From positions 1 to 64,000 of the forward strand of contig JBHIEG010000004.1 of the NCBI GenBank assembly GCA_046760505.1: 64,000 nt of DNA, given 5' to 3'. A model generated the notes under the pieces. It made no database searches. It saw only the letters and a program-made list of their open reading frames with translations, and had not been told where the DNA came from. Of this stretch, positions 3,919 to 53,357 are shown piece by piece (the first letter of the stretch is position 1; each line of letters starts with the position of its first letter). A program made the position numbers and the translations under genes. Source of the DNA: CAYFZR01 sp046760505 [NCBI: Candidatus Hydrothermarchaeota archaeon] (lineage in GTDB: Archaea; CAYFZR01).

Positions 3919-6279
3919 ATGAATAGTTCACTCGGAAAAACTGGTATTTACATATGCCACTGTGGAGTGAATATAGCCGGAGTAGTTGATGTAAAGAAAC
4001 TAGTGGAAGAGTTAAAGGAAGAATTGGGAGAAAGTTACATCGTAAAAGATTATGAGTTCATGTGCTCTGATCCTGGGCAGATATTGATTGAAGATGACAT
4101 AAAGGAAGAGAAGTTGGATAGAGTAGTTATTGCTGCTTGCTCTCCAAAATTACATGAACCCACTTTTAGAAGAGTCTTGGCTAAATCAGGACTCAATCCT
4201 TATCTTTTAGAAATGGCCAATATAAGGGAGCACTGTTCTTGGGTTCACATGAAAGATCCGGAAAAAGCAACAAAGAAAGCAAAAGACATTATAAAAATGA
4301 GCATTGCAAGATCAAAACTGCTAGAGCCATTGGAAAAGAAAAAAGTTAAGGTATTAAAAAGCGCTCTTGTAATAGGAGGAGGTATAGCAGGTATCGAAGC
4401 ATCTTTGAATCTTGCTAATCAAGGGTTCAAGGTATATCTCCTAGAAGAGACGCCGAGCATAGGAGGAAGGATGGCTCAGTGGGACAAAGTTTTTCCCACT
4501 GGAGATTGTTCCATATGCATACTAGGACCTAAAATGGTAGATGTGCATTATCACGAAAACATCGAACTTCTCACATATTCTGAGCTGTTGGATGTTGAAG
4601 GAGAAGTGGGATCCTTTAGGTGCAAGATAAAAAAGAAAACAAGGTTTGTAGATGAATCAAAGTGTACTGGATGTGGTTTGTGCTCTGATTTGTGTCCTGT
4701 TGAGGTTCCGAATGAGTTTGAATTTGGCTTGGGGAGTAGAAAAGCCATTTATGTTCCATTTCCTCAGGCGGTCCCTCTGATCTATGTTATAGACAAGGAT
4801 AATTGCATTGGTTGTGGACTCTGCTCTGAAGTATGCGAACCAGAAGCAATAAACTATGAAAGCAATGATGAGGAGATTGAGATAGAAGTTGGGACCATAA
4901 TAGTCGCTGTCGGTGGAGATCCCTTCGACCCATCTGTAATCAAGGAATACAACTATTCTGAGTATCCTGATGTTATCACCACTGCTGAATTGGAGAGAAT
5001 ACTCAATACAACAGGACCTACGAGGGGTAAGCTTATAAGACCTTCTGATAACAAGGTTCCAAAGAGGATTGCCTTTGTACAATGCGCTGGTTTTAGAGAT
5101 GATAGATTCAACGAATATTGCTCAAGATTCTGCTGCATGGCAAGCCTGAAGGAATCACAGTTAATAAAAGAGAAACATCCGGATGCAGAGATATTTATCT
5201 TCTACATGGATATAAGGGCATTTGGTAAGGGATACGAAGAGTACTATAAGAGAATTCAAAAAGAATTTGGTGTTAAGTTCATAAGGGGCAGGATAGCGGA
5301 AATAGTGGAGAAAAATGGAGTACTTCTGGTAAGAGGAGAGGACACACTCCTTGGAGAGCCCATAGAACTTGAAATGGATCTTGTTGTACTTTCTGTAGGG
5401 ATGGTACCCTCTAAATATTCCAAAAAAGTACAAGAAAAACTTAAACTATGCACGAGCCCTGATGGTTTTTTGATGGAGGCTCATCCTAAGTTGAGACCCG
5501 TAGAAACGGAAACCGAAGGAATATACATTTGCGGCTATGCTCAGGGACCCAAGGACATACAGGATTCTGTTGCTCAAGCAGCAGCAAGTGCTGCAAAAGC
5601 CAGCACCCTCATGGCTAGGGGGGAAGTAGAACTGGAGGCACTCATAGCAGAGGTGGACCAAGACAAATGTACGGGATGTAAGCTTTGTGAAACCATATGC
5701 GAGTTTAATGCTCCGAAGGTAGTGGAAAAAAAGGCGAACATAAGCGAGAAGTCATGCGTCGGATGTGGAGTCTGTGTTGGAGCCTGTCCTGCAGATGCTA
5801 TAAAGATCTATCATTTTACGGATGAACAGATAAGAAGCCAAATGCACGCTGTATTATCAAGTAAGAGAGAAGTACCCCTGATACTTGTATTCGCGTGCAA
5901 CTGGTGCTCTTACGTAGGGGCAGATCTTGCTGGAATAAGCAGATACCAGTATCCCACGAATGTAAGGATAATAAGGATGATGTGCAGTGGAAGGCTTGAT
6001 CCAGCTTTTGTGCTTGAAGCCTTTTATTTGGGAGCGGATGGGGTGCTGATAACCGGATGCCACCCAGGGGACTGTCATTACAGATTTGGAAATATACACG
6101 CAGAAAAAAGATATTATGCTTTGAAGGAGATATTGGGAATAATAGGAATAGATCCAAGAAGATTGAGGTTAGAGTGGATATCTGCCTCAGAAGGAGAAAG
6201 ATTTGCCTCTGTTGTTACGGATATGGTAAGAGAGATAAAGGAAATTGGTCCGATAGGATATGAGTTCTTAGGGGTATGA
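3919..6279 (+). CDS. hdrA: Heterodisulfide reductase HdrA fused to an MvhD/FrhD domain
   Basis: The 786-residue protein begins with the HdrA N-terminal region (IYICHCG). It then has an FAD-binding Rossmann motif (GGGIAGIEAS, about residue 153) and two inserted [4Fe-4S] motifs (CTGCGLCSDLC near 249, CIGCGLCSEVC near 296). A further ferredoxin pair follows (CTGCKLC near 584, CVGCGVC near 613). From about residue 650 to the end is an MvhD domain with CNWC, CSGR and CHPGDC motifs for a [2Fe-2S] centre. HdrA is the flavin site of electron bifurcation or confurcation. MvhD normally wires it to a hydrogenase or formate dehydrogenase. The next gene starts two bases after the stop, so transfer to a polyferredoxin is likely. 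HdrB and HdrC are not in the window. Confidence 0.92.
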   Translation: MNSSLGKTGIYICHCGVNIAGVVDVKKLVEELKEELGESYIVKDYEFMCSDPGQILIEDDIKEEKLDRVVIAACSPKLHEPTFRRVLAKSGLNPYLLEMANIREHCSWVHMKDPEKATKKAKDIIKMSIARSKLLEPLEKKKVKVLKSALVIGGGIAGIEASLNLANQGFKVYLLEETPSIGGRMAQWDKVFPTGDCSICILGPKMVDVHYHENIELLTYSELLDVEGEVGSFRCKIKKKTRFVDESKCTGCGLCSDLCPVEVPNEFEFGLGSRKAIYVPFPQAVPLIYVIDKDNCIGCGLCSEVCEPEAINYESNDEEIEIEVGTIIVAVGGDPFDPSVIKEYNYSEYPDVITTAELERILNTTGPTRGKLIRPSDNKVPKRIAFVQCAGFRDDRFNEYCSRFCCMASLKESQLIKEKHPDAEIFIFYMDIRAFGKGYEEYYKRIQKEFGVKFIRGRIAEIVEKNGVLLVRGEDTLLGEPIELEMDLVVLSVGMVPSKYSKKVQEKLKLCTSPDGFLMEAHPKLRPVETETEGIYICGYAQGPKDIQDSVAQAAASAAKASTLMARGEVELEALIAEVDQDKCTGCKLCETICEFNAPKVVEKKANISEKSCVGCGVCVGACPADAIKIYHFTDEQIRSQMHAVLSSKREVPLILVFACNWCSYVGADLAGISRYQYPTNVRIIRMMCSGRLDPAFVLEAFYLGADGVLITGCHPGDCHYRFGNIHAEKRYYALKEILGIIGIDPRRLRLEWISASEGERFASVVTDMVREIKEIGPIGYEFLGV

Positions 6280-8133: not shown

Positions 8134-9036
8134 ATGAAGGCATTAGCTTTCATAAAAGAACTTCGGGCACCCTTCTTTACCGCTACAGTGGTCCCAGTTT
8201 TACTCGGAGGAACAATAGCATTTTCTCACGGTATTTTTCATATTCAATATTTCCTTCTCGCACTTATAGGTGCTATTTTTTTGCACGCTGGAACCAATGT
8301 GATCAATGATTACTTTGATTTTTTGAGTAAGGACGATTTGCTTGTAGAAATAAAAACTCCATTCAGCGGTGGGAGTGGAATATTACCTGCAGGACTTTTG
8401 AAGCCTAAAGAGGTCTTTATTTTTTCTCTAATACTATTTTTGATTGGTTCTATAATAGGACTGTATCTTACCTTTGTTAGAGGAGCCTTCATACTTTTGA
8501 TTGGTGTTGTAGCAGTATTTTCAGGCATTTTTTATTCTGCTCCACCAGTTTCTCTGGCAAATAGAGGTATAGGGGAATTATTTGTTGGTTTGAATTTTGG
8601 TCCTTTATGCGCATTGGGTTCGTATTATGTCCTGAGTCAAGAGATTTCATTTGAACCAATATATGCTTCTATTCCTGTAGGTATTTTGATAGCTACCGTC
8701 TTATACATAAATGAATTTCCAGATTATTCTGCAGATAAACAGGTAGGAAAGAGACATTTAGTGGTAAGATTGGGAAAGGAAAAGGCTGTTAGAGGATATG
8801 CCCTGTTATTCTTGGTTACTTATCTTTTCATTTTTGCAGGAGTAATCATTAAAATACTTCCGATGTACAGTTTGTTGGCCATGGCTACAGCTCCTTATGC
8901 GGTAAAGGCAGTGAAAATTGCAAAAAAATATTACGAAGACACGGTGAATTTAATTCCTGCTATGGGATTGACGATAAGGATACACCTTCTGACAGGACTT
9001 TTACTTTCCATCTCCTATCTTCTTGAAGCTCTTTAG
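8134..9036 (+). CDS. UbiA-superfamily prenyltransferase, MenA-like
   Basis: The 300-residue protein has eight or nine hydrophobic helices and both aspartate motifs of the UbiA family: NDYFDFLSKDD near residue 63 and DYSADKQVGKR near 198. These bind the prenyl diphosphate through magnesium. The spacing and the motif FSGGSGILP are typical of MenA-like 1,4-dihydroxy-2-naphthoate prenyltransferases. In archaea such proteins make menaquinone or related lipid-soluble electron carriers. The aromatic substrate cannot be read from the sequence. A membrane quinone would fit the multiheme cytochrome at 27678. It is transcribed alone, divergent from the regulator at 7690-7962. Confidence 0.8.
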   Translation: MKALAFIKELRAPFFTATVVPVLLGGTIAFSHGIFHIQYFLLALIGAIFLHAGTNVINDYFDFLSKDDLLVEIKTPFSGGSGILPAGLLKPKEVFIFSLILFLIGSIIGLYLTFVRGAFILLIGVVAVFSGIFYSAPPVSLANRGIGELFVGLNFGPLCALGSYYVLSQEISFEPIYASIPVGILIATVLYINEFPDYSADKQVGKRHLVVRLGKEKAVRGYALLFLVTYLFIFAGVIIKILPMYSLLAMATAPYAVKAVKIAKKYYEDTVNLIPAMGLTIRIHLLTGLLLSISYLLEAL

Positions 9037-27677: not shown

Positions 27678-29003
27678 ATGCTCCTGCGATGGATGTGCTT
27701 AATTTGCTCATTACTTGCTGTGGGCTACATTGCTTCAGGTGCAAATCTCTCAGTCTATGTTGTCTACAAAGAACCTGTGGTGAATACCAGCGGATATGAC
27801 TGTAAGGAATGCCACATGGAGAGAGAGGTACTCTCTAGATACGGTAGGCTAGATCTATACATAAATAGGACCGCATACGAAAAGACAAGCCACAACAAAA
27901 ACTGTACCGTCTGCCATCCTTATTCTGTAAAAATATTCTATAACGATACCCTTTTTATTTTTAATCTTACATATTGTCCACCAAGTAGATTTAGAGGAGG
28001 ATTTGGAAGGGAAAATGTAACTAGAACAACCCGGTCAGAGACGTGCGTAAGCGAAGAGTGCCATGAGTACAGAGAACTTTTCTTCGGTAGCAAGCACCAC
28101 CTTGCACCGGATATCGTGAAGATGCCTCAATATAGAAATGCATCTCATCCCGAATACAGACCCCAATACTGCGAGACATGTCATGCAACCTGCTCCTCAT
28201 GCCATTGGGCAGGTAAAATTCAAAATATCTCGGGGAAATTCACCCTAAATATATCAGTAAATATCAAAGATCACGCCTTTACGAAGAACATTACAAGCGA
28301 GAGATGTGCAATATGCCATACAGGCGAATATGTATTCATAAATAAATCCACGGTAGAAATAAAAGGTCACCCCCAATATCAGGAGAAAATGGCAAGCGTG
28401 CACAAAAAAATGGAATGCAAGGAGTGCCATACCACAATCCATACACTGGGAATCTCGGAAAAAGAAAAACCCGCGACATGCGATAAATGTCATAAGATTC
28501 AGGCTGAAATGTATAAATTTGGGCCACATAGAATTGTAGAATGTACTATATGCCATTCTTCTTGGCTTCCTGTTTCTATCGAGCGTGGGACGTACAAAAT
28601 ATTCCTAAAGGCTTACAGATTCGGAGACTACGCGAGCTGGAAGACCCATGAGGTAAGAAGAAAGGCTCGCAACTGCACCCTATGTCATGGAAACAGCACG
28701 ATAATTAAAGAATATAAAGAAAGGAGAGACATAATACTTGAAAAAATGAATTCAACAATTAATATGGGAGAAAGGGCCGGAGCAAATATGCTGGAGGCAA
28801 AATTGAAACATATAGAAGCAAGGGCGGCTTGGTTTCATATCGCGCCAAATAGGGAAGAACTTTCAGAAGAAACTATTCGTTTAGCAGAGAAAGCCATAGG
28901 CCAGGCAAATATAACAAATTTAATAGCTTTGTTAGCGGTAGTTACGGCTTCTGTCGTAACCGTTCTCGTAGTTTTGATCATCTGGCCCTACGAGGAAAAA
29001 TAA
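27678..29003 (+). CDS. Membrane-anchored multiheme c-type cytochrome (ten heme sites)
   Basis: The 441-residue protein has an N-terminal signal peptide (about residues 1-22). Nine CxxCH motifs follow (CKEC, CTVC, CETC, CSSC, CAIC, CKEC, CDKC, CTIC, CTLC, each before His), plus one CX4CH motif (CVSEECH, near residue 123). A C-terminal transmembrane helix (about residues 413-435) ends in WPYEEK. The domain would lie outside the cell, anchored by its tail. Such cytochromes carry electrons across or beyond the envelope in cytochrome-containing methanogens and ANME archaea. Two motifs overlap closely (CETCHATCSSCH), suggesting stacked hemes. The partner is unknown; no heme lyase genes are visible. 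Confidence 0.9.
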   Translation: MLLRWMCLICSLLAVGYIASGANLSVYVVYKEPVVNTSGYDCKECHMEREVLSRYGRLDLYINRTAYEKTSHNKNCTVCHPYSVKIFYNDTLFIFNLTYCPPSRFRGGFGRENVTRTTRSETCVSEECHEYRELFFGSKHHLAPDIVKMPQYRNASHPEYRPQYCETCHATCSSCHWAGKIQNISGKFTLNISVNIKDHAFTKNITSERCAICHTGEYVFINKSTVEIKGHPQYQEKMASVHKKMECKECHTTIHTLGISEKEKPATCDKCHKIQAEMYKFGPHRIVECTICHSSWLPVSIERGTYKIFLKAYRFGDYASWKTHEVRRKARNCTLCHGNSTIIKEYKERRDIILEKMNSTINMGERAGANMLEAKLKHIEARAAWFHIAPNREELSEETIRLAEKAIGQANITNLIALLAVVTASVVTVLVVLIIWPYEEK

Positions 29004-43213: not shown

Positions 43214-43960
43214 ATGGATTGGAAAGATGTTGCCAACGTATTATACAAGTACATAAGACTGAATAGCTTCCCAGTAGGTGTAAAGTTACTGGAAAAAAAA
43301 GAGGAGATTCCTCCAAAAACGAGAAGATTTAAAACGAAAATGAATAATTGCCAGCTTGCTGGTCTTGCCCGATCTTACGGCTGGGTTGTGGGAGCCACGA
43401 AGGAGGATCTCGTTTGCGTGGCAGGAGCAGCCTGTGTTGGATTAATTGAGACTCCTGAAAAAATAACTTCGGGGAAAATATCCTACAAGGTAAATCAGAA
43501 AACATTGGAAGCCGCCAAAAAAATGCAAGACGCTGTTTTCCGATTAAAACCTATATACGAGGCAATACTCTTTTACTCTATAGAGAGGGCTCCGATGGAT
43601 CCTGATGTAGTTCTATGTTACGTAAATCCTGCACAAGCCATGAGGCTTATTCATGCTTCTTTATGGGAGATAGGAGGAAAATTAAAATTCGGGTCTAGCG
43701 GTGAATATGGTCTCTGCGGAGAGGCAATCGCTCAAACAATCATAGAAAAAGAACCAAAAATAGCAGTAGCCTGCTATGGCGACAGGAGGTTCGGTTTAAC
43801 TCAAGATCACGAACTGATTTTTTCATTTCCGGCTGAGTGGACGGAAAGAATCTTGGAAGGATTGGAAGAGACACACAAAGCGGGCGTCAGGTATCCAATA
43901 CCATTCCAATTAGAATTCGCGCCCCAGATGCCAGAAATTTATTTCATTGAAGAAGAATAG
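43214..43960 (+). CDS. DUF169 family protein
   Basis: The 248-residue protein matches DUF169: a short helical start (VLYKYIRLNSFPVGVKLLE), a Cys in MNNCQLAGLARSYGWVVG, CVAGAACVGLIE near 71 and SGEYGLCGEAIAQTI near 157. Several conserved Cys suggest a metal or redox site. The family is common in methanogens and strict anaerobes, and no reaction is established. It stands alone after the tRNA-Arg gene. Confidence 0.75.
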   Translation: MDWKDVANVLYKYIRLNSFPVGVKLLEKKEEIPPKTRRFKTKMNNCQLAGLARSYGWVVGATKEDLVCVAGAACVGLIETPEKITSGKISYKVNQKTLEAAKKMQDAVFRLKPIYEAILFYSIERAPMDPDVVLCYVNPAQAMRLIHASLWEIGGKLKFGSSGEYGLCGEAIAQTIIEKEPKIAVACYGDRRFGLTQDHELIFSFPAEWTERILEGLEETHKAGVRYPIPFQLEFAPQMPEIYFIEEE

Positions 43961-44011: not shown

Positions 44012-44028
44012 TGATCTAAATTAGATCA
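44012..44028. terminator. Palindrome at the end of the aks operon
   Basis: TGATCTAA-A-TTAGATCA is a perfect 17-base palindrome that spans the stop codon of the last operon gene, between convergent genes. It could stop or stabilise the long minus-strand transcript, but lacks a clear T tract. Confidence 0.35.
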
Positions 44029-45524
44029 GGTATCTGCTCCTCCTCCCTGACTATGCATTCTATGAGAAAAGGCTCTCTTATTCTAATTGTCTCATTTAAA
44101 ACTTCATTTAGAGAGGGTATGTCATCTACTCTTTCCCCATTTATTCCATAAGAATTAGCCAGCTTTGTAAAATCGGGATTTCTTAAATTTATTGAGGTAG
44201 TTCTTCCGTATATTCTCTCTTGGAATTGTCCTATCAGTTCGAGAGATGAGTTGTTTATCAGAACTATTTTTATTGGTATCTCATATTGTTTTATCGTTGC
44301 TAGTTCACTTGAACTCATCATAAAACCGCCATCTCCAACTATAGAAACTACTAATTCGTGAGGCATTGCAATCTGCACACCTATTGAAGCAGGTACAGAG
44401 AAACCCATGGGGGTGAAGTTACCCGGTACGATAAAACTTCTCGGTCTATATACCTTAGAAAGCATGCAACCCCAAACGGTAAAGGATCCTATGTCATAGA
44501 CTGTTATTCCTTTCTTACCTAGCGTATCATGGACTGTTTTGCATATGCTCTTGCTTGTGAATCCTTTATGTCCTTCAAGGTCTTCTTTGTCCTTTTTTAT
44601 TCCTATCTTTTTGTTTATATCGTATTTCAACAGTCCCAGTAAGACTAATTTTGCATCTCCAATTATCTCCATATCAGCAAGGACTCTGGATGAATTTTTC
44701 TTAACGTCTATTCTTACTACCTCAGCATCGATATCTTCAAGATCAATGGTCAATGGAGAAGCGCTGCATCCTATAATGATTAAGAGATCTGTCTCCTTTA
44801 ACATTTCATTTGCTTTCTTATTACCCCTTTTCCCCATAACTCCTAAAGAAAGGGGATGATCCTCTGGTATAACTCCTCTTGCCATCATCGAGGTCGCAAC
44901 AGGTATGGAAATGGACTCTGCTAGTTTGACTAACTCTTTACATGCGTTACTCCATAAAATTCCTGATCCTGCTAAAATCATCGGATTACTCGAATTTTCA
45001 ATTCTCTCCGCAAGTTTTCTAATTAAGTTCTCATCGGGCTTTCTTCTAGAAACATGAAATTTTCTTCTTTTTACATCTTCTTTTTTCTTCAAAACGTCTT
45101 CAGGTACCGCTATGTGCACTGGTCCAGGACAATCTTTCAAAGAGAACTCATAACAAGAAAGGACGGTTTCATAAACATTATTTTCCAATATAACGCTTTT
45201 TTTTGTTATATTTCTAAATAAATTTGTTGAAACATCATCTACTCCGGTAATGGCTACGACTGGTATGTTATCTTTTTTTGCATTTGCTACTCCCATGGTA
45301 AGATTCAATGCTCCTGGACCTGCTGTTGCTATACAAGTGCCGGGAGAACCAGAAACTCTTGCGTAACCATCACATGCATGTACAGCTCCTTGTTCGTGTC
45401 TTGTCAATATGTTTTTGATGTTAGAATCTAGCAAAAGATCGTACATTTCCAAAATTCTTTTTCCGGGAATTCCAAAAACAGTCTTTACGTTAGCATCTTC
45501 TAATGCCTTTAAGAAGGGATTCAT
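44016..45524 (-). CDS. ThDP-dependent enzyme, acetolactate-synthase-like, in the coenzyme B operon
   Basis: The 502-residue protein has the ThDP fold: catalytic Glu44 in RHEQGAVHACDGYAR, GPGALNLTMGVANAK near 69 and the diphosphate motif GDGGFMMSSSELATI near 400. It resembles acetolactate synthase in layout. The RFDDR-type region is replaced by GCSASPLTIDL, and the GMVRQWQ-type motif by LELIGQFQ, so substrate use is likely different. It overlaps aksF by four bases as the last gene of the operon. A decarboxylase acting on a long 2-oxo-diacid is the best hypothesis. Ordinary acetolactate synthase is the alternative. Confidence 0.7.
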   Translation of the reverse strand: MNPFLKALEDANVKTVFGIPGKRILEMYDLLLDSNIKNILTRHEQGAVHACDGYARVSGSPGTCIATAGPGALNLTMGVANAKKDNIPVVAITGVDDVSTNLFRNITKKSVILENNVYETVLSCYEFSLKDCPGPVHIAVPEDVLKKKEDVKRRKFHVSRRKPDENLIRKLAERIENSSNPMILAGSGILWSNACKELVKLAESISIPVATSMMARGVIPEDHPLSLGVMGKRGNKKANEMLKETDLLIIIGCSASPLTIDLEDIDAEVVRIDVKKNSSRVLADMEIIGDAKLVLLGLLKYDINKKIGIKKDKEDLEGHKGFTSKSICKTVHDTLGKKGITVYDIGSFTVWGCMLSKVYRPRSFIVPGNFTPMGFSVPASIGVQIAMPHELVVSIVGDGGFMMSSSELATIKQYEIPIKIVLINNSSLELIGQFQERIYGRTTSINLRNPDFTKLANSYGINGERVDDIPSLNEVLNETIRIREPFLIECIVREEEQIPDLI

Positions 45525-46525
45525 AAGATTTCCCTTAACGTTTTTATTAGAGATTCAGTAAATTCTTTTGTAGACGAATTTCCATTTAAATCAGGAGTTT
45601 TTATTCCTCTTTTTAATACTTTTTCGATGGACGATTCAATCTTTTTTGCATAATCTTTTTTTCCGAGATAACTCAGCATTAGGCAAGAGGACAATATGCT
45701 AGCAATGGGATTTGCTATGCCTTTACCTGCGATATCTGGGGCACTACCATGAATCGGCTCGAAGAGAGCATAATTATCCCCCAAATTCATACTTGGAACT
45801 ATACCGATGCCCCCTATCAAACCTGCGCCGATGTCGGAGATTATGTCTCCGAAGAGATTTGTCGTCAGAATAACGTCAAATTTTTTTGGATCTTCTACGA
45901 GATGCATACAAAATGAATCTATCAGACACTCTTCTTTCTCTATTTCTTGATATCTTTCACCCACTTTAAGAGAGACATCTCTGAACAATCCACATGTCTT
46001 TCTTAGGACATTTGCTTTGTGGACAATTGTTACTTTCTTTCTTTTTTCTTTTCTAGCCTGTTCAAAAGCAATCTTTGCTATTCTCTCGCTTCCCTTTTTT
46101 GTAATAATTCTCTTCGCAGAGTATCCGTCGTTTAACTCTTCTTCAATTCCTGAGTATAATCCCTCTGAGTTTTCCCTTACCACTATCAGGTCGACATCTT
46201 TGTGGATTCCTCTTATTTCCTTTAGGCTCTTTATGGGTCTGATATTAGCGTATAATTCAAGTTCTTTTCTTAATGTAAGTATGGGACTTTTATATCCTTC
46301 AATAATCTTGGGAGGGGTGGTTGTTGCACCGAATAAACATGCATCAGTTTCTTTTACTGTCTCAATTACTTCTTCAGATATGGACTCTCCGCATTTCTTA
46401 TAACATTCATATCCTGCTTCCAGAAAGACGAATTCCATGTCCAAATTCAATTCTTTTAAAATTTTTATGGTGGCTCCAATTACTTCAGGTCCTATTCCGT
46501 CGCCTTCAATAACCGAGATTCGCAT
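45521..46525 (-). CDS. aksF: Homoisocitrate/isopropylmalate dehydrogenase family enzyme, probably AksF
   Basis: The 334-residue beta-decarboxylating dehydrogenase has [11 protein letters not shown] at the start, ANIRPIKSL near 94, [13 protein letters not shown] near 114 and the NAD/metal motifs [14 protein letters not shown] and [17 protein letters not shown]. It oxidises and decarboxylates a hydroxy diacid. VRENxEGLY is typical of archaeal AksF/LeuB. The operon partner AksE marks this copy as coenzyme B synthesis, which extends 2-oxoglutarate stepwise to 2-oxosuberate. It overlaps aksE by 34 bases. Confidence 0.82.
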
Positions 46526-47004
46526 ATCCTTTTCTTCCTGTAAGGGATTAAACCTCCACTTTTTAGAATATCTAACATAAATTCTGGAAGTTTTTCTGCC
46601 TTTAGCACGTTTTTTTCGGTTTTTACGATGCCATTTTCAATATCCACCTCTATTATATCACCTTCTTCAACCATTTTTGTTATTCCTTTGCATTCGACAA
46701 CTGGGAGACCTAAGTTTATCGAGTTTCTGAAGAAAATTCTGGCAAAGGATTCTGCGATAACACATTTTATGCCCGCCTCTTTTATTGCTATGGGGGCCTG
46801 TTCCCTACTAGATCCACATCCAAAGTTTTCTCCCGCTACTATTAAGTCACCTTCCTTTATTTTCTTAGAAAAATCAGGATCTAACCCTTCTAATAGATGT
46901 TCTACCCAGATGGTGTGATCCAACGTCCTTAGATATTTTCCAGGAATGATAACGTCAGTATCGATATGATCGCCAAGTTTCCATACCCTTCCTTTAATTC
47001 TCAT
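46492..47004 (-). CDS. aksE: Homoaconitase small subunit AksE
   Basis: The 170-residue swivel domain has [17 protein letters not shown] at residues 11-27 and the [15 protein letters not shown] motif near 60. Residues 24-27 read YLRT. In methanogen enzymes this loop, with Arg26, is the reported mark of homoaconitase as against YLVY in isopropylmalate isomerase. It therefore points to coenzyme B rather than leucine synthesis. It overlaps aksD by four bases and aksF by 34, so its last ten codons share bases with the aksF start. Confidence 0.85.
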
Positions 47005-48182
47005 GTTATCTCCCTTGGGTCCGTTATCTCTCCCGTTATCGCAGAAGCTGCCACGGTCGCAGGGCTAGCCAGGTATATCTTTGCCTTTCTGCTTCCCATT
47101 CTTCCTATGAAATTTCTATTCGAGGAGGAAATACAGATTTCCCCCTTTCCAAGAACCCCGAAATTCCCACCCAAGCACGGGCCGCAACCTGGCGGACCCA
47201 AAACCGCTCCGGCTCTTAAAAAATGTGCCAACAAACCTTCTTTACATGCTTTGTCCAAAGTCTTCTTTGAAGCAGGAACAATGATGAGTCTAACGTCTTC
47301 ATGGATTTTTTTATCCTTCAAAATATTTGCAACTATCCTAAGATCCTCTATCCTTCCGTTAGTACATGATCCAATGAAAGCCTGATCTATCGAGCTTTTT
47401 ACGTCTGATACTGGCCTTACAGAGTCTACTCTGTTTGGAGAAGAAACTGAAATATCTATATCGTCTGCATCTAAGAATATTTCTTTTTCCACCTGGTATG
47501 AATCATTGTTGGCGATGATTCCTGTTTTTGCACCCATCTCTACTGACATATTACAAAGAGTCTGTTTTTCTGAGATGTTCATGTTATTTACGGTCTCTCC
47601 GAAGAATTCTATGCACATATAGTGGGCCCCACTCATTCCGATTTCTTTTATTACATTAAGAATTACATCTTTTGCACTAACTAAGTTTGTGAGGTTACCG
47701 TTTATGTTCACCCTGTACGTTTTTGGTACCTTGAGCCAAGTCATCCCGCTTTCTAAAATATAGGCGCAGTCTGTAGCACCCATACCTATGGCAAGGGCTT
47801 TAGATGCCCCATTCGTACACGTGTGAGAATCCGCTCCTACCAATATCATTCCTGGCTTCACCAGTCCCCTTTCATAGATTACTTGGTGGCATATTCCGTG
47901 ACCTATGTCAAAGAAGTTTTTTATATTCTGCTCTCTTGCAAATCTTCTTATCATGTTGTGCAAGTTGGCTGTTTGTTCATTGTTAGCAGGTATTAGGTGA
48001 TCAAACACGATAGCTACTTTATCAGGATCCCATACTTTCTCTGCTAGCTCTTTAAAGCTTTTAACAACTAAGGTTGCGGAACCATCATGCATCATGCAAA
48101 GATCCACAGGAGTTTCAACGAAATCTCCAGCGTATACTTTTTCTTTTATTTTTTTGCTGATTATTTCCTCAGCCAAGGACAT
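47001..48182 (-). CDS. aksD: Homoaconitase large subunit AksD
   Basis: The 393-residue aconitase-family protein holds one [4Fe-4S] cluster through the Cys in [11 protein letters not shown] and the pair in [11 protein letters not shown]. Substrate residues lie in [17 protein letters not shown] and [14 protein letters not shown]. With AksE it dehydrates and rehydrates homocitrate and longer homologues. LeuC has the same motifs; the AksE loop and the length of the partner synthase favour AksD. It overlaps aksA by 14 bases. Confidence 0.82.
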
Positions 48183-49365
48183 ATCTTTCTCCTTTCTTTA
48201 CTCTTTCAGCAAATTCTCTGATTAAATCGTCTGTTATTGTGTATCCATCCTCTCTGTATTCTTTAACGAGATAAACTACCGAATCTACTTCTTCTTCGCT
48301 CAAATTATAGTTTAATTCCTTTAATTTTTCCAAAACACCACGAAATCCGCTGTGTTTACCATAAACTAATTCTCTTTTCTTTCCAACTATCTGAGGAAGG
48401 TATGGTTCGTAGGTAAATGAATTTTCCAATACGGCAGCAACATGAATTCCTGATTCATGTCTGAAAACATTTTTGCCGACTATAGCCTTGTTTGGTGGAA
48501 TATCTATTCCTGAGTACCTAGACACCAACTCAGAGAGCTCACTGAGCACAGAATACCTGAAGCCCAAGTCGACTCCATACAGGATGTAAAGAGACATGAT
48601 TACTTCCTCGAGAGAGGCATTTCCCCCTCTTTCTCCGATTCCATTTACCGTACATGATACCGCATTAATTCCGGCTTCCACAGCGGCTAAGGAATTGGCA
48701 ACTGCAAGCCCAAAGTCGTTGTGACAATGAACCGCCATGGGTATTTTGATCTCTTTTCTGAGCGTGGATATGAGTGATTTCATTGCAGTTGGGTGTATGC
48801 AGCCAACCGTATCTGCCAGCCCCACTCTATCGGTTTTTAATTCCTCAGCGATTTTGTATACCTTTAACAGGGCATCGATATCGGATCTCGTACCATCTTC
48901 ACAACTTAACTGTGTCCATATACCATGGTCTTTTGCATACTCTACTGTTTCTATTCCTTTTTCGATTATTTCGTCTAAACGCGCTTTTACTTTATACTTC
49001 AGGTGGATATGAGATGTTGGGAAAAATATTATGACACCGTCAACTCCACACTTCAGGGCATAGTCCACATCCTTTATGTTTGCCCTTGCAAGAGAAAGTA
49101 CTTTTAAATTTAAACCTTGGTCAACTATCTTTTTTATACCAATCCTTTCCCTTCTTGATACACTGGGAAAGCCAGCTTCGATTTCTTGAACACCCAGTTC
49201 ATCCAGCTTTATTGCTATTTCTAACTTTTGTTGGGGAGTAAACGCCACCCCCGGAGTTTGTTCACCATCCCTTAAGGTAGTATCATATATAGTCAGGTTT
49301 TCCGCTATAGAGATGTTTTTTCTCACTTCATCTGTTAAGTTAAATCCACTGACACAACTTTTCAT
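48169..49365 (-). CDS. aksA: Homocitrate synthase family enzyme AksA
   Basis: The 398-residue DRE-TIM enzyme has IYDTTLRDGEQTPGVAF near residue 24, HCHNDFGLAVANS near 216 and NGIGERGGNASLEEV near 242. HESGIHVAAVL and YGKHSGFRG lie near 300-340. It condenses acetyl-CoA with a 2-oxo-diacid. The length of about 400 residues, without the C-terminal regulatory domain of LeuA or CimA, fits AksA of coenzyme B synthesis. It begins one base after the unknown gene ends. Citramalate synthase is the alternative. Confidence 0.82.
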   Translation of the reverse strand: MKSCVSGFNLTDEVRKNISIAENLTIYDTTLRDGEQTPGVAFTPQQKLEIAIKLDELGVQEIEAGFPSVSRRERIGIKKIVDQGLNLKVLSLARANIKDVDYALKCGVDGVIIFFPTSHIHLKYKVKARLDEIIEKGIETVEYAKDHGIWTQLSCEDGTRSDIDALLKVYKIAEELKTDRVGLADTVGCIHPTAMKSLISTLRKEIKIPMAVHCHNDFGLAVANSLAAVEAGINAVSCTVNGIGERGGNASLEEVIMSLYILYGVDLGFRYSVLSELSELVSRYSGIDIPPNKAIVGKNVFRHESGIHVAAVLENSFTYEPYLPQIVGKKRELVYGKHSGFRGVLEKLKELNYNLSEEEVDSVVYLVKEYREDGYTITDDLIREFAERVKKGERYVLG

Positions 49366-50271
49366 CTATATCCTTCCTATGAGTTCATTCAGAGATGAGG
49401 CAATCTCTTCTTTTGAAGCGCCAAAGTGAATTGCGATTCCTATATTATTGTTTAACTTCATGAATCCTAATTTATCTCTCAGACAACACCTCAGTATAAA
49501 AGGATGTCTCACGATTTCTTTTGCTACTTCTCTTGGACATATGTTTTCGTGGATGAATTTCTCGTTAAATTTCTCTTCAAATACCATCTTTGATACTTCA
49601 CAGCCAATAAGCACATTATTTTCCTTTACCTCTTGGACATCTGTTAGAAAGGCGAAGTTTCCATTCAGTTCATTTTTTGTTATCCCGATATCACACGGAA
49701 ATAGGAGAAGGGTATTTTTAGCAATATATTTTCTTCCTTTTTCTATCAAATTTATGGCATTCAACTCGAAATCTATGAAAAAATCTTTTTCTTTTATCAA
49801 ACCGCACCGTCTTAGATAAGTGATATCCTCCATCAGTTTTGAGGGGAAAGGCGGAACAACGTCTATGACCTGTATTTTTTTGATATTTGAATCTAAGGGA
49901 TCGATAACGAAATTCATATGTTCATGCTCTCCAAATACTACTACTGCCTTTGCATTAGATTTTTTAGCCTCTTTGTAAGCAGTGGTTATAAGTTCGCTCT
50001 TACATCTCACGTCTATGGGTCTTTTTATCACTGAAGTCTCTTCTGGCATTGAAATTATGGATAAATTAATTATTTTTTGAATAAATCCTTTTCCAGCTAA
50101 TTCTGTCTCAACGATTGCTGCATCATTACTTTTTTCATTTAACAGAACTATGTACTTAGATGAAAAGTAGGCTTCTTTGTTCTTAAGAGACCTTTTAATT
50201 TCTTCTCTGTCCCTCAAATTGATTTTGACTTTTTTCAATGAAACAAATCTACAGTGCTCCGGCAAGATCAT
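49366..50271 (-). CDS. Unknown protein of the coenzyme B / marker-11 operon
   Basis: Taking ATG 50271, which overlaps the previous stop as ATGA, this is a 301-residue soluble protein. It alternates strands and helices, with a KAVVVFGEHEHMNFVIDP segment near 135 and a HENICPREVAKEIVRHPFILRCCLRD segment near 250 containing paired Cys. A longer reading from 50319 is less likely. No family was recognised. Its place between a radical SAM gene and aksA, with no gap, implies a role in the same pathway. Confidence 0.65.
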   Translation of the reverse strand: MILPEHCRFVSLKKVKINLRDREEIKRSLKNKEAYFSSKYIVLLNEKSNDAAIVETELAGKGFIQKIINLSIISMPEETSVIKRPIDVRCKSELITTAYKEAKKSNAKAVVVFGEHEHMNFVIDPLDSNIKKIQVIDVVPPFPSKLMEDITYLRRCGLIKEKDFFIDFELNAINLIEKGRKYIAKNTLLLFPCDIGITKNELNGNFAFLTDVQEVKENNVLIGCEVSKMVFEEKFNEKFIHENICPREVAKEIVRHPFILRCCLRDKLGFMKLNNNIGIAIHFGASKEEIASSLNELIGRI

Positions 50272-51266
50272 AAGATATCCCTGTGAGGAGTTAGGTCGCA
50301 TCCTGTACACGGCGGACACATTGTCTTTGGCTTATCCATCTTTAGCCCGTATGAATCGAGTATTTCCTTCTGCGCTATAGCGAGTCTTAAAAGCCTATCA
50401 GCGCTGGGTCTACTTGCTCTATTATCTGTTGAACGCATCAAATCCCCCCTTCTCAAAGGAGATATAACTAGTGCCCGTAGTATGGGAATGACCCCAATCG
50501 ATGCTAAATGCTCGATTCCTTCTATTACCGTTTCATCGCTCTCTCCCAGACCTATAATCATGTTTGAAGTCACTTTATTTTCTCCAAATACTTCTACAGC
50601 ATATTTCAGTGAATCTATAATTTCATCGAGAGATAAATCCTTGCATGTTCTTTTGAATATCTCCTGATCGTAACTCTCTATGTTGTACTTTATTTCATCG
50701 GCTCCAGCGCTGTACAGTAGATCTGTCCCCTCGTTTCCTGCAGAATAAGGAGATACGCCTATTGGGACATTAAATTCTTCTTTTGCCAGTCTGATTATTT
50801 TTGCCAGTTTAATTACCTCTTCTCTGGGATCTTTAGGTACCCCACTCGTTAGAGAAATCGCTGAAAATTCCTTATTTTTTGAGGCTGATCTTATCATATC
50901 CAATACTTTCTCAACTGATCTGTTTTCACCTTTCAGTTTGGGTACTGGACAGAATTTACAATCGAATATACAGGAGGCATCTACTGTTATGTAAGCCTGT
51001 TTTGGACAATGAAGAATTGGTTCTTCAAGTTCAAATTTATCGATTATTATTTCGTCCTCCATTATTATTTCATTTTCCTTTAGTATAAGAGGAGAATCCT
51101 TTGCTATTGTAAGTCTTACTCTTTTCCCACCTTTTTTTATGAATATGGATTCTGAACCGGCGCCAGGTCCAGAAGCAGAGTAACCTAGCCTTAAATTATC
51201 AATACTAACCTCGTCGATGTTTATTTTTCCTATTGAGATTAGTTTTGCCTTTATTTCGGGCTTCAT
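50268..51266 (-). CDS. Radical SAM protein of the marker-11 operon
   Basis: The 332-residue protein has a beta-rich N-terminal domain of about 95 residues containing SASGPGAGSESIFIKKGG. The radical SAM core follows, with CIFDCKFCP near residue 104 (CX3CX2C), LTSGVPKDPREEV near 140 and a C-terminal CPPCTGCDL motif for an extra cluster. The core resembles biotin-synthase/HmdB-like enzymes. It overlaps marker 11 and the unknown gene by four bases on each side. The substrate is unknown. Confidence 0.75.
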   Translation of the reverse strand: MKPEIKAKLISIGKINIDEVSIDNLRLGYSASGPGAGSESIFIKKGGKRVRLTIAKDSPLILKENEIIMEDEIIIDKFELEEPILHCPKQAYITVDASCIFDCKFCPVPKLKGENRSVEKVLDMIRSASKNKEFSAISLTSGVPKDPREEVIKLAKIIRLAKEEFNVPIGVSPYSAGNEGTDLLYSAGADEIKYNIESYDQEIFKRTCKDLSLDEIIDSLKYAVEVFGENKVTSNMIIGLGESDETVIEGIEHLASIGVIPILRALVISPLRRGDLMRSTDNRASRPSADRLLRLAIAQKEILDSYGLKMDKPKTMCPPCTGCDLTPHRDIL

Positions 51267-52201
51267 ATCAGAACACCTTGATCTGGTTTATCATAATAAG
51301 GTATCGCTGCCAATGCACCGATTAACCCTCTTTTTCCTGTTATTTGGAATAAGTTTACGTCGTTTTTTCTCGCAACATTATAGGCTTTTTCTATTGTGAC
51401 TATGCTTTCCTTTGCCTCTCTTGAAAATTTTTTTAAATCCTCATTAATAAAAAATCTCCCATATGTTGCGAGTCCGGTTTGATCAGATAGGGTATTCTTT
51501 TCGAGATATTTCTGGGCAAACTCTATGATTTCATTCTTTTTTTCTTTTTTTGAGGCAAATCCCAATGATACACTCACGCAATTTTGAGTTTTATCAGGAT
51601 TTTTTGGATAAAGCTGAACTATTGAGTGATATATGTATTCTCCCAATCCTTTTTTCTGAATTTCGCACCCCAAATTATGCGTTAATGACCATGTTGCTCC
51701 TTCTTCTTTATTATCTGTATCATCTACTCCCAAGACTAATCTTTCCATTCTTGGCAAGACTACGGTTGCTCTACTGTACTTGCTTCCGCCTCCGCTAGCG
51801 TGTATCTCGACTCTTTTAACTCCTTCTGCCATTCCACGCGAATAGGATGCGCCAACACCTCCTCCCCCCAATCCTGCATAAGTAACATGGATTTCATTCT
51901 CTATTATTTTGATTTCCTCTATTCCTGCGCCCGAAATGCCGGGAACCAAGTTGAGATCGCATTTTCCAGCAAGAGTTAAGAAAACATTTCTCTTTCCTTC
52001 CCTTCTAGCTTCTTTTACTAATTTGCTGGTTTTTTTGAAGTGGAGAGTGGTCCAAGCCGAACCCCCAAAACTTGCAGTCTCCTCTATAATCTCTACATAG
52101 GTATTGTCCTCGCTTGCTATGGCAATTATTTTGTCACAGGGAGCAATCCACTCCTTATCTCCGAATTCTTCAGCAAACTCCTCTCTCGAATAGACCTTCA
52201 T
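51263..52201 (-). CDS. Methanogenesis marker protein 11
   Basis: The 312-residue protein matches methanogenesis marker 11. It has an SFGGSAWTTLHF segment near 45, Gly-rich AGLGGGGVGASYSRG near 111 and VLGVDDTDNKEEGATW near 155, a nucleotide-binding motif shared with TiaS-like proteins. The C-terminal part (LATYGRFFINEDLKKF and GKRGLIGALAAIPYYDKPDQG) is also typical. It is found in methanogens; its function is unproven. It lies in an operon with two radical SAM proteins and aks genes. Confidence 0.85.
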   Translation of the reverse strand: MKVYSREEFAEEFGDKEWIAPCDKIIAIASEDNTYVEIIEETASFGGSAWTTLHFKKTSKLVKEARREGKRNVFLTLAGKCDLNLVPGISGAGIEEIKIIENEIHVTYAGLGGGGVGASYSRGMAEGVKRVEIHASGGGSKYSRATVVLPRMERLVLGVDDTDNKEEGATWSLTHNLGCEIQKKGLGEYIYHSIVQLYPKNPDKTQNCVSVSLGFASKKEKKNEIIEFAQKYLEKNTLSDQTGLATYGRFFINEDLKKFSREAKESIVTIEKAYNVARKNDVNLFQITGKRGLIGALAAIPYYDKPDQGVLI

Positions 52202-52225: not shown

Positions 52226-53032
52226 TTAAAATGATATTTCTTTTCTAAAGAACCTTTGGATGTCAAAGCCCTTAGTTTTCATCCTTAAGAGAGTTGTTGA
52301 GTAGGGATCGATAATCTCCTCTTCCAGATATTTTACCAAAATGGGATCTATCTCCTTTAATTTATCGATTAACTCGTTTCTTTCAGATTTATTCATTATT
52401 CTGGGATCTGTCATTGCTGCAACATGAAATCTTACACCGTAATCCAACAGATTTTTGATAGCATCAAATGGAATTTCGAAAGACTCGGGAATTGCTCCTG
52501 TCAGAAATGAGAACTTTTCCGGAGTTCCTGCTTTGAGCGATACTCTTACATGGACTTTTTTATAATTTTTTAATTTTTTTACGTAGTCTTTATCAATTCC
52601 AAATAAGATTCCGTTGGTTTCTAATATAAATAAAGAAAAATCCGAATCTTCTACATACTCTAAAAGAGATAGAAGGTGTTCTTTTCCTAAAGTTGGTTCT
52701 GCTCCTGAAATCCTTAATTTTCGAACGTTATACATTTTTGCTGCCTTGGATAACCTCTCATAGGCTTCTTTGGGAGAATAGAAAGAACCCATGCTCTCAG
52801 GATACTCTCTGCTTAAATCCACCCAGCAAAAACAGCATCTCAAGCAGCATCCACATGCGTATCCAGTACTGATCCCTCCATAGACACCTACCGTATAGAA
52901 ATCCGTGTATTTTCTCTCTTCTCTATTTTTTCCTCTGGTAACTATTTTCTCGGTTTCTTTAGCTAACCAAACCGGATCGAATGGTTTTGAGTCCTCTTCT
53001 AGAAGCCTTGGATACATAGGTGAAACATTCAT
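52226..53032 (-). CDS. Radical SAM protein at the head of the coenzyme B / marker-11 operon
   Basis: From ATG 53032 the protein is 268 residues. The cluster motif CCLRCCFC (CX3CX2C) near residue 60 sits in an unusual Cys-rich stretch, GYACGCCLRCCFCWVDL. It is followed by LRISGAEPTLGKEHLL and the FILETNG strand typical of the family. It has no extra C-terminal cluster domain. A longer reading from 53200 would translate the antisense of the tRNA-Met gene and is rejected. ATG 53017 is an alternative start. The target is unknown. Confidence 0.75.
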   Translation of the reverse strand: MNVSPMYPRLLEEDSKPFDPVWLAKETEKIVTRGKNREERKYTDFYTVGVYGGISTGYACGCCLRCCFCWVDLSREYPESMGSFYSPKEAYERLSKAAKMYNVRKLRISGAEPTLGKEHLLSLLEYVEDSDFSLFILETNGILFGIDKDYVKKLKNYKKVHVRVSLKAGTPEKFSFLTGAIPESFEIPFDAIKNLLDYGVRFHVAAMTDPRIMNKSERNELIDKLKEIDPILVKYLEEEIIDPYSTTLLRMKTKGFDIQRFFRKEISF

Positions 53033-53121
53033 AAATAAAATTTGGAACCGATGATTAATAAGTTGAAGGATAAGGCAAGAGATAAATATCAGTTTATGGT
53101 TTCTTAAATATCGTGTCTCAT

Positions 53122-53194
53122 GGGCCCGTAGCTTAGTGGTTAGAGCGCCCGGCTCATAACCGGGCGGTCGCGGGTTCGAATCCTGCCGGGCCCA
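53122..53194 (+). tRNA. tRNA-Met (anticodon CAU), elongator type
   Basis: A complete 73-base cloverleaf. Acceptor GGGCCCG pairs with CGGGCCC plus discriminator A. The anticodon stem CCCGG/CCGGG holds the loop CTCATAA. The D arm GCTTAGTGGTTAGAGC and T arm GCGGG-TTCGAAT-CCTGC are complete. It lacks the initiator-type start and resembles archaeal elongator tRNA-Met; a tRNA-Ile decoding AUA after modification cannot be excluded. No CCA is encoded. Confidence 0.92.
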
Positions 53195-53357
53195 CCTCAC
53201 ACGAAGATCGAAGATCCTCGGTGCGCCAAAAATCCTCGATTCAACCTTTTATAAAGGTTGATCAAAGGAACCACCTCTTCGAGGTAGATCATCATGCATT
53301 TGTTTTTACATTTTTGTTTTATTTCTAAAAGTTCGTTTTTTATTTTCGCTTTGTCAC
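53195..53357. other. Hairpin-rich spacer after tRNA-Met
   Basis: No gene is seen. The stretch holds a perfect hairpin, TCAACCTTT / AAAGGTTGA, at 53241-53261 with a three-base loop. A short palindrome (CCTCTTCGAGG, about 53273-53283) and the near repeats GAAGATCGAAGATC lie close by. It might be a terminator, a small RNA or the trace of an inserted element beside the tRNA. Confidence 0.4.

What the first reader, a model, noticed from the sequence alone, without database searches (positions are those of the whole stretch)
44016..49365. ThDP enzyme coupled to aksA-aksD-aksE-aksF: candidate 2-oxosuberate decarboxylase
AksA, D, E and F make 2-oxosuberate for coenzyme B. The next known step removes its carboxyl group to give 7-oxoheptanoate, and to my knowledge no dedicated gene is firmly assigned. 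Here a 502-residue ThDP enzyme overlaps aksF by four bases. It keeps the ThDP glutamate and diphosphate motifs. It lacks the RFDDR-like and GMVRQWQ-like motifs of acetolactate synthase, where GCSASPLTIDL and LELIGQFQ appear instead. The coupling and motif loss together suggest it decarboxylates a long diacid.
Basis: partly seen in the sequence, partly recalled or inferred. Interest (0 to 1): 0.8.

Follow-up and report, generated by a model that had tools for sequence, protein, structure and literature searches.

The report
Likely missing coenzyme B decarboxylase gene
A methane-cycling archaeon carries, at the end of its coenzyme B operon, a thiamine enzyme that has lost the hallmarks of its amino-acid-making relatives and probably performs the long-unassigned step that removes a carboxyl group from 2-oxosuberate.

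Summary
A 502-aa ThDP enzyme (44016-45524, -) starts inside the aksF stop codon and ends an eight-gene operon: Mmp11, radical SAM, DUF7714, aksA, aksD, aksE, aksF, ThDP. It keeps the ThDP glutamate but lost the acetolactate synthase (AHAS) hallmarks tested (FQE loop, both RFDDR arginines, QWQ tryptophan), kept by 47 of 47 IlvH-linked AHAS. No IlvH homologue lies in the 64 kb, and the protein falls outside the AHAS clade, on a long branch.

The strongest support came from elsewhere. A second ThDP protein, derived from indolepyruvate oxidoreductase alpha (IorA), sits in or beside the aks/Mmp11 genes of many methanogens: in 27 of 30 fetched loci with aksA, and in 113 of 165 McrA+ against 6 of 129 McrA- genomes. 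In one genome (L275; no McrA match) it follows aksF with the same 4-base overlap. Two McrA+ genomes lacking coenzyme-type aksA and aksF also lack it, yet keep Mmp11, radical SAM and DUF7714.

I conclude that a ThDP decarboxylase belongs with the aks pathway and that this AHAS-derived protein fills that slot here, most likely as 2-oxosuberate decarboxylase (0.70). The substrate is inferred, no orthologue was found, and the window's genome is not held.

The parts
44016..45524 (-). 502-aa ThDP-dependent enzyme of the AHAS superfamily; proposed 2-oxosuberate decarboxylase; last gene of the operon
   Evidence: AF2 model pLDDT 90.2, pTM 0.92; closest folds AHAS
45393..45395 (-). codon of the ThDP-activating glutamate (E44, RHEQ)
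   Evidence: invariant in the alignment
45225..45230 (-). site (residues S99/T100) where the AHAS loop with DAFQE is deleted
   Evidence: alignment; position
44751..44765 (-). residues S254-L258 (SASPL) where AHAS has RFDDR; both arginines lost
   Evidence: 47 of 47 IlvH-linked AHAS keep both Arg; position
44223..44225 (-). residue F434 where AHAS has the QWQ tryptophan
   Evidence: 47 of 47 IlvH-linked AHAS keep Trp; position
45521..46525 (-). aksF-like homoisocitrate dehydrogenase (334 aa), 4-base overlap with the ThDP gene
   Evidence: (TIGR02088 446 bits, over cut-off; AksF2_Meth 451, below 540)
46492..47004 (-). aksE-like homoaconitase small subunit (170 aa)
   Evidence: TIGR02087 over cut-off; HacB_Meth 211.5, below 230
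47001..48182 (-). aksD-like homoaconitase large subunit (393 aa)
   Evidence: TIGR02086 over cut-off; HacA_Meth 520, below 550
48169..49365 (-). aksA-like homocitrate synthase family protein (398 aa)
   Evidence: TIGR02090 510 bits, over cut-off
49366..50319 (-). DUF7714 protein (PF24830), distantly related to the XcbA family; proposed aldehyde-to-thiol step
   Evidence: NF052538 116 bits, below cut-off 150; PF24830 197 bits; linked to aks genes
50268..51266 (-). radical SAM protein (332 aa), LipS2/BioB-like region; recurrent partner of Mmp11 and aks genes
51263..52201 (-). methanogenesis marker protein 11 (312 aa) with a TiaS-type TCKD domain
   Evidence: TIGR03280 367 bits, over cut-off; PF22641

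Best explanation
The window carries a coenzyme B operon. AksA, AksD, AksE and AksF extend 2-oxoglutarate to 2-oxosuberate (established for these families; inferred here from homology). The ThDP protein, coupled to AksF, then decarboxylates 2-oxosuberate non-oxidatively: ThDP attacks the 2-oxo group, CO2 leaves, and the enamine is protonated and released as 7-oxoheptanoate. The protein descends from the AHAS side of the ThDP enzymes but has lost the residues that bind the second 2-oxoacid for carboligation and an active-site loop, as expected of a plain decarboxylase for a longer substrate. In many other methanogens the same role is probably played by an unrelated IorA-derived ThDP protein. Shown: gene order, coupling, motif loss, separation from the AHAS clade, recurrence of a ThDP gene in or beside aks/Mmp11 loci. 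Inferred: substrate, product, and absence of carboligation.
For: Operon with 4-base overlap. AHAS hallmarks lost while the ThDP Glu is kept; 47 of 47 IlvH-linked AHAS keep all of them. The 31 AHAS rows taken from the genome searches all have an IlvH match in the fetched locus; the window has none in 64 kb (best E 0.58). Outside the AHAS clade. Far below curated AHAS cut-offs (397 bits against 866; 376 against 538). An IorA-like ThDP protein is in 27 of 60 DUF7714 loci fetched and in 27 of the 30 with aksA; in 17 it lies between the radical SAM gene and aksA on the same strand. It directly follows Mmp11 in 14 of 14 genomes with split aks genes, and follows aksF with the same ATGA overlap in L275. 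It lacks the ferredoxin domain of true IorA, and the L275 copy also lacks the cluster cysteines, which fits a non-oxidative reaction. In the same 294 genomes it occurs in 113 of 165 McrA+ and 6 of 129 McrA-. Two McrA+ genomes that keep Mmp11, radical SAM and DUF7714 lack it together with orthologues of aksF and of aksA (one has a copy beside nitrogenase genes).
Against: No orthologue of the AHAS-derived protein was noticed: nothing closer than AHAS at E 1e-94 in 392 genomes, and one that scored below AHAS would have been missed, so its own linkage rests on one locus. The window's genome is not held: an IorA-like gene or a normal AHAS elsewhere cannot be excluded. The long branch (2.36) makes its tree place uncertain. 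Genome G143, which holds L275, has no McrA match at E 1e-50, no DUF7714 and only a TiaS-level Mmp11 match, so the closest parallel to the window may serve another product than coenzyme B, or the genome is incomplete. 49 of 165 McrA+ genomes lack both IorA-like protein and DUF7714; in five of them with Mmp11 neither ThDP query matches the 12-19.5 kb around it. Four Thermoplasmatota genomes with aksA beside DUF7714 lack the IorA-like protein. No analysis of the substrate pocket was made.
Confidence: 0.7

Rival explanations
1. It is a divergent acetolactate/acetohydroxyacid synthase that serves branched-chain amino acid synthesis and sits beside aks genes because these resemble leu genes.
For: Best family hits and best folds are AHAS; the best protein matches in the genome search that I examined are AHAS, 36-41% identity.
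Against: FQE, both RFDDR Arg and the QWQ Trp lost; no IlvH in 64 kb; outside the AHAS clade; operon partners are Mmp11, DUF7714 and homocitrate-type enzymes.
Confidence: 0.08
2. It decarboxylates sulfopyruvate for coenzyme M, and the XcbA-related DUF7714 turns the sulfoacetaldehyde into coenzyme M.
For: DUF7714 is distantly related to the XcbA family; XcbA is described as functional analogue of a sulfoacetaldehyde dehydrogenase in bacterial coenzyme M synthesis (one passage). ThDP enzyme and DUF7714 share the operon.
Against: Methanosarcina acetivorans has ComDE and MMP16 for these steps (passages) and yet has DUF7714 (control genome); Methanosarcinales-type genomes keep DUF7714 and the IorA-like protein. 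In two genomes the IorA-like gene is gone with aks genes while DUF7714 stays.
Confidence: 0.08
3. It is a ThDP decarboxylase or carboligase for another 2-oxoacid of the neighbourhood (2-oxoglutarate, 2-oxoadipate, 2-oxopimelate), or the elongated diacid serves another product than coenzyme B.
For: Substrate is not testable from sequence here; related ThDP proteins include guanidino-oxopentanoate decarboxylase and hydroxy-ketoacid synthases (meaning of HKA recalled). The aksADEF-ThDP block of L275 lies in a genome without McrA match.
Against: Decarboxylating the shorter intermediates would drain the elongation cycle (reasoning). The window block also holds Mmp11 and DUF7714, and the IorA-like protein follows McrA (113 of 165 against 6 of 129).
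Confidence: 0.14

Closest known systems
Acetohydroxyacid synthase large subunit (IlvB/IlvI/IlvG; TIGR00118, NF004919)
   Same: Three-domain ThDP fold, alignment over nearly the whole length, ThDP Glu and GDG motif
   Different: 502 aa, against 552-614 aa in the IlvH-linked AHAS examined; FQE loop, RFDDR arginines and QWQ Trp lost; no IlvH; coupled to aksF; outside the AHAS clade
IorA-like aks/Mmp11-linked ThDP protein of methanogens (far below the TIGR03336 cut-off)
   Same: ThDP enzyme in the same operon context; in L275 the same slot and the same 4-base overlap with aksF
   Different: Another ThDP family (indolepyruvate oxidoreductase alpha), no AHAS-type middle domain match, mostly with cluster cysteines
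ComDE sulfopyruvate decarboxylase (coenzyme M)
   Same: Works like it: decarboxylation of an acidic 2-oxoacid to an aldehyde that then becomes a thiol (PMC12068725 passages; ThDP use recalled)
   Different: Sequence not compared directly; no ComD or ComE model among the 25 best of 54 NCBIfam hits shown
5-guanidino-2-oxopentanoate decarboxylase model (NF005712)
   Same: AHAS-superfamily protein named as decarboxylase of a long 2-oxoacid; 279 bits
   Different: Far below its cut-off of 500 bits

Membership tests
Acetohydroxyacid synthase (AHAS) | ThDP-activating Glu and GDG diphosphate motif | tested here: met
   (E44, GDGG)
Acetohydroxyacid synthase (AHAS) | RFDDR-type arginine that binds the second substrate (role recalled) | tested here: not met
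   Ser and Leu at the two Arg positions; Arg in 47 of 47 IlvH-linked AHAS
Acetohydroxyacid synthase (AHAS) | Trp of QWQ and the FQE loop | tested here: not met
   Phe for Trp; loop deleted; both kept in 47 of 47 AHAS
Acetohydroxyacid synthase (AHAS) | Regulatory subunit IlvH/IlvN nearby | tested here: not met
   best window match E 0.58; IlvH match in 31 of 31 AHAS loci from the genome searches
Acetohydroxyacid synthase (AHAS) | Score above curated cut-off | tested here: not met
   397 of 866, 376 of 538 bits
Acetohydroxyacid synthase (AHAS) | Placement inside the AHAS clade | tested here: not met
   outside it in both trees; long branch
Indolepyruvate oxidoreductase alpha / IorA-like aks protein | Sequence match to IorA-like proteins | tested here: not met
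   two IorA-like queries give no match in the window at E 0.01
2-oxosuberate decarboxylase (function, not an established family) | Genetic coupling to 2-oxosuberate synthesis genes | tested here: met
2-oxosuberate decarboxylase (function, not an established family) | Conversion of 2-oxosuberate to 7-oxoheptanoate | not testable with these tools
   needs enzyme assay
ComDE sulfopyruvate decarboxylase | Match to ComD/ComE models | tested here: inconclusive
   one search shows 25 of 54 NCBIfam hits; none shown is ComD or ComE

The most novel reading that the evidence does not exclude
The 2-oxosuberate decarboxylase of coenzyme B synthesis was recruited at least twice from unrelated ThDP families, once from indolepyruvate oxidoreductase alpha (many methanogens) and once from the AHAS side (this window). 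The operon around it encodes the whole coenzyme B route: AksADEF, the ThDP decarboxylase, DUF7714 (with or without the radical SAM protein) for aldehyde-to-thiol conversion, and Mmp11, with its TiaS-type kinase domain, for the final phosphorylation.
Probability: 0.28. Interest if true: 0.92.

Novelty: new variant of a known kind. Interest (0 to 1): 0.78.

Why it matters
Coenzyme B is the partner of coenzyme M in methyl-coenzyme M reductase. A 2011 gene inventory counts two unknown proteins in its synthesis (PMC3087415, passages), and a 2025 study still calls the pathway unknown (PMC12068725, passages). This work gives candidate genes for the decarboxylation step in two forms, one of them (the IorA-like gene after mmp11) in Methanosarcinales-type genomes, a group with genetic tools, and a candidate (DUF7714) for the next step, so the question becomes directly testable.

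Tried and rejected
Own-genome search: no genome is held for the window. ThDP hits beside NifB-like genes (L010, L042, identified by eye) and in Methanoperedens (L019, L021, L027) belong to another branch and were set aside. The phylum of a Thaumarchaeota genome: DUF7714 in 0 of 200. Methanobacteriota-type class I methanogens could not be reached by handle; among 14 controls Methanocaldococcus jannaschii gives McrA and Mmp11 matches but no DUF7714 match. Lineages with McrA but neither DUF7714 nor IorA-like were examined at Mmp11: no ThDP match. I considered sulfopyruvate decarboxylation (coenzyme M) and rank it low because M. acetivorans has ComDE and MMP16 as well as DUF7714. I first read G145's AksA match as an aks relic; its neighbours are NifH and a nitrogenase component, so I treat it as NifV-like. 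No pocket analysis: model coordinates were not used in scripts, and the active site lies at a dimer interface (recalled). The second structure job and VIA-align were not used.

Literature searches for a prior assignment: (open-licence PMC papers; several lists capped). No listed paper assigns the decarboxylase; papers by White and by Graham cited there were not seen. The paper on the bacterial coenzyme M pathway is not held; XcbA's role comes from one passage and recall.

Full report
What is there. The minus strand from 52201 down to 44016 holds eight genes with overlaps or no gap between all neighbours (-4, -52, 0, -14, -4, -34, -4): methanogenesis marker protein 11 (Mmp11), a radical SAM protein, a DUF7714 protein, aksA, aksD, aksE, aksF and a 502-aa ThDP enzyme. 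The ThDP start codon shares ATGA with the aksF stop. It is the last gene; the next ORF with a family match is convergent (DUF169, 43214-43960).

Is the ThDP protein an acetolactate synthase? It aligns with AHAS over nearly its whole length and its predicted structure (pLDDT 90.2, pTM 0.92) is nearest to AHAS. But it scores 397 and 376 bits where the curated cut-offs are 866 and 538. I aligned it with 110 related proteins and three E. coli controls. Of the 110, 47 have an IlvH match in the fetched locus; all 47 keep Phe and Gln of FQE, both arginines of RFDDR and the tryptophan of QWQ. The window protein has a deletion at FQE, Ser and Leu for the arginines and Phe for the tryptophan, while the ThDP glutamate is kept. 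No IlvH homologue lies in the 64 kb (best E 0.58). In a tree of 114 rows the 48 AHAS rows form one clade (98*) without the window protein, which falls on the side of the other ThDP proteins (94, not starred). In a smaller set of 63 rows the 37 AHAS rows form one clade (97*) and the window protein stands next to it (96.6). Its branch is long (2.36), so the exact place is unsure, but neither tree puts it inside AHAS.

Is the linkage found elsewhere? The same protein was not: in 392 genomes of the phylum of a Methanoperedens genome (taken to be Halobacteriota) nothing came closer than AHAS at E 1e-94, and an orthologue scoring below AHAS would have gone unnoticed; the top hits examined are AHAS. 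The neighbouring DUF7714, however, proved to be a good tracer of aks loci. It occurs in 120 of 294 genomes of that phylum, in 17 of 116 of the Methanomassiliicoccales phylum and in 0 of 200 of the Thaumarchaeota phylum. I fetched 60 DUF7714 loci (chosen by hand); 55 hold at least one aks gene, commonly aksE-DUF7714-aksF. Of 15 further Thermoplasmatota loci only three have an aksA match. In 27 of the 60 a second kind of ThDP protein is present, that is in 27 of the 30 loci with aksA. In 17 of them it lies between the radical SAM gene and aksA on the same strand, and 16 of these also show Mmp11 upstream: Mmp11, radical SAM, ThDP, aksA, aksD, aksE, DUF7714, aksF. The protein resembles indolepyruvate oxidoreductase alpha (TIGR03336, 121 bits, cut-off 651). 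All 27 keep the ThDP glutamate; the seven compared lack the C-terminal ferredoxin domain that the six true IorA proteins beside them have.

Distribution of the IorA-like protein. With a profile of 20 members it is found at E up to 1e-66 (my limit) in 119 of the same 294 genomes: in 117 of 120 DUF7714+ genomes and 2 of 174 DUF7714- genomes (kinship ignored). Against McrA at E 1e-50, alkyl-type relatives included, it occurs in 113 of 165 McrA+ and 6 of 129 McrA- genomes. In 14 of 14 genomes of Methanosarcinales type (my label; two of them are a Methanoperedens and a Methanosalsum), where aks genes are scattered, it lies directly downstream of Mmp11.

Three further observations tie it to the front half of the pathway. 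First, in L275 (genome G143) the order is aksA, aksD, aksE, aksF, IorA-like, with the same ATGA overlap after aksF as in the window: the same slot filled by an unrelated ThDP family. G143 has no McrA match at E 1e-50, no DUF7714 and only a TiaS-level Mmp11 match, so it shows the tie between aksADEF and a ThDP enzyme, not necessarily one to coenzyme B. Second, that copy has lost the cluster cysteines, which argues against an oxidative, ferredoxin-linked reaction. Third, genomes G145 and G226 are McrA+ and keep Mmp11, radical SAM and DUF7714 side by side, but no IorA-like or aks match lies in those loci, and the genomes give only true IorA (for G226). Genome-wide, the best aksF matches are 42% beside leuA-like genes, against 68-71% for three relatives; the best aksA matches are 38% in G226 and, in G145, a 58% copy beside NifH and a nitrogenase component. 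aksD and aksE were not searched genome-wide. Loss of the aks genes thus went with loss of the IorA-like gene but not of DUF7714. A study of Methanocorpusculum reports homocitrate synthase, homoisocitrate and homoaconitase genes enriched in environmental species (PMC10035134, passage), perhaps a comparable loss; I do not claim that G145 and G226 are that genus.

Mechanism. Coenzyme B synthesis has one step that calls for a ThDP enzyme: removal of the carboxyl group of 2-oxosuberate to give 7-oxoheptanoate (recalled; PMC3087415 lists 2-oxosuberate and a semialdehyde as intermediates). The recurrence of ThDP genes from two unrelated families in or beside the aks/Mmp11 locus is best explained by that step. 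For the window protein, loss of the residues that hold the second substrate in AHAS (role recalled) fits a decarboxylase that no longer ligates. The steps of catalysis, the substrate and the product are inferred.

Against. The AHAS-derived form is known from this one locus. The window's genome is not held. 49 of 165 McrA+ genomes have neither DUF7714 nor the IorA-like protein, and in G029, G072, G101, G136 and G192 no ThDP match adjoins Mmp11. Four Thermoplasmatota genomes have aksA beside DUF7714 but no IorA-like protein. G217 has DUF7714 and aksA-like genes but no IorA-like match at the limit. So the solution is not universal, and other enzymes must serve elsewhere. For the thiol step, the 2025 study suspects MMP16 and/or L-ASST in coenzyme B synthesis (PMC12068725, passages), which rivals the DUF7714 idea.

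Compared with what is known. The protein should work most like ComDE of coenzyme M synthesis (decarboxylation to an aldehyde that then becomes a thiol) but belongs by descent to the AHAS side of the ThDP enzymes, of which it fails five defining features. I therefore call it a new variant of a known kind. In the papers listed by the searches I saw no assignment of this step; a 2025 paper says that the biosynthetic pathway of coenzyme B is still unknown (PMC12068725, passages).

Noticed in passing
window 49366-50319; loci L081-L085, L146-L205: DUF7714 (PF24830), distantly related to the bacterial XcbA family, is linked to aks genes in 55 of 60 fetched loci (often aksE-DUF7714-aksF) and is a candidate for the aldehyde-to-thiol step of coenzyme B; MMP16/L-ASST are rivals in print.
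   Followed up: partly
window 51263-52201: Mmp11 carries a TiaS-type TCKD domain (PF22641) and sits in the aks operon; it could be the kinase that phosphorylates 7-mercaptoheptanoylthreonine. In the family search four of 14 control genomes ring, two over the cut-off.
   Followed up: partly
window 50268-51266: Radical SAM protein with LipS2/BioB-like hits is a recurrent partner of Mmp11 in aks loci and, more distantly, in McrA+ lineages without DUF7714 (L313-L316); function unknown.
   Followed up: partly
L153, L154 (G226, G145): McrA+ genomes without coenzyme-type aksA/aksF and without the IorA-like gene that keep Mmp11, radical SAM and DUF7714; perhaps dependent on an outside coenzyme B precursor.
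   Followed up: yes
L275 (G143): aksADEF plus IorA-like ThDP gene in a genome without McrA match: an incomplete genome, or 2-oxodiacid elongation and decarboxylation used for another product.
   Followed up: partly
L010:2843-5800, L042:792-3741: Methanomassiliicoccales-type genomes have another AHAS-superfamily ThDP gene right after a NifB-like radical SAM gene (by eye); possible decarboxylase of that lineage.
   Followed up: no
window 27678-29003, 3919-6279, 8134-9036: Cytochrome c7-like protein, a ferredoxin/FlpD-type fusion that looks like HdrA, and a UbiA-type prenyltransferase hint at a cytochrome-bearing methanogen or alkane/methane oxidiser; the lineage was not resolved.
   Followed up: partly
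window 52226-53200 and 53122-53196: The radical SAM ORF's listed start runs antisense over a tRNA-Met gene; its true start is probably further downstream.
   Followed up: no
G029, G072, G101, G136, G192 (L312-L316): McrA+ genomes with Mmp11 but without DUF7714 or the IorA-like protein; their 2-oxosuberate decarboxylase is unaccounted for.
   Followed up: partly
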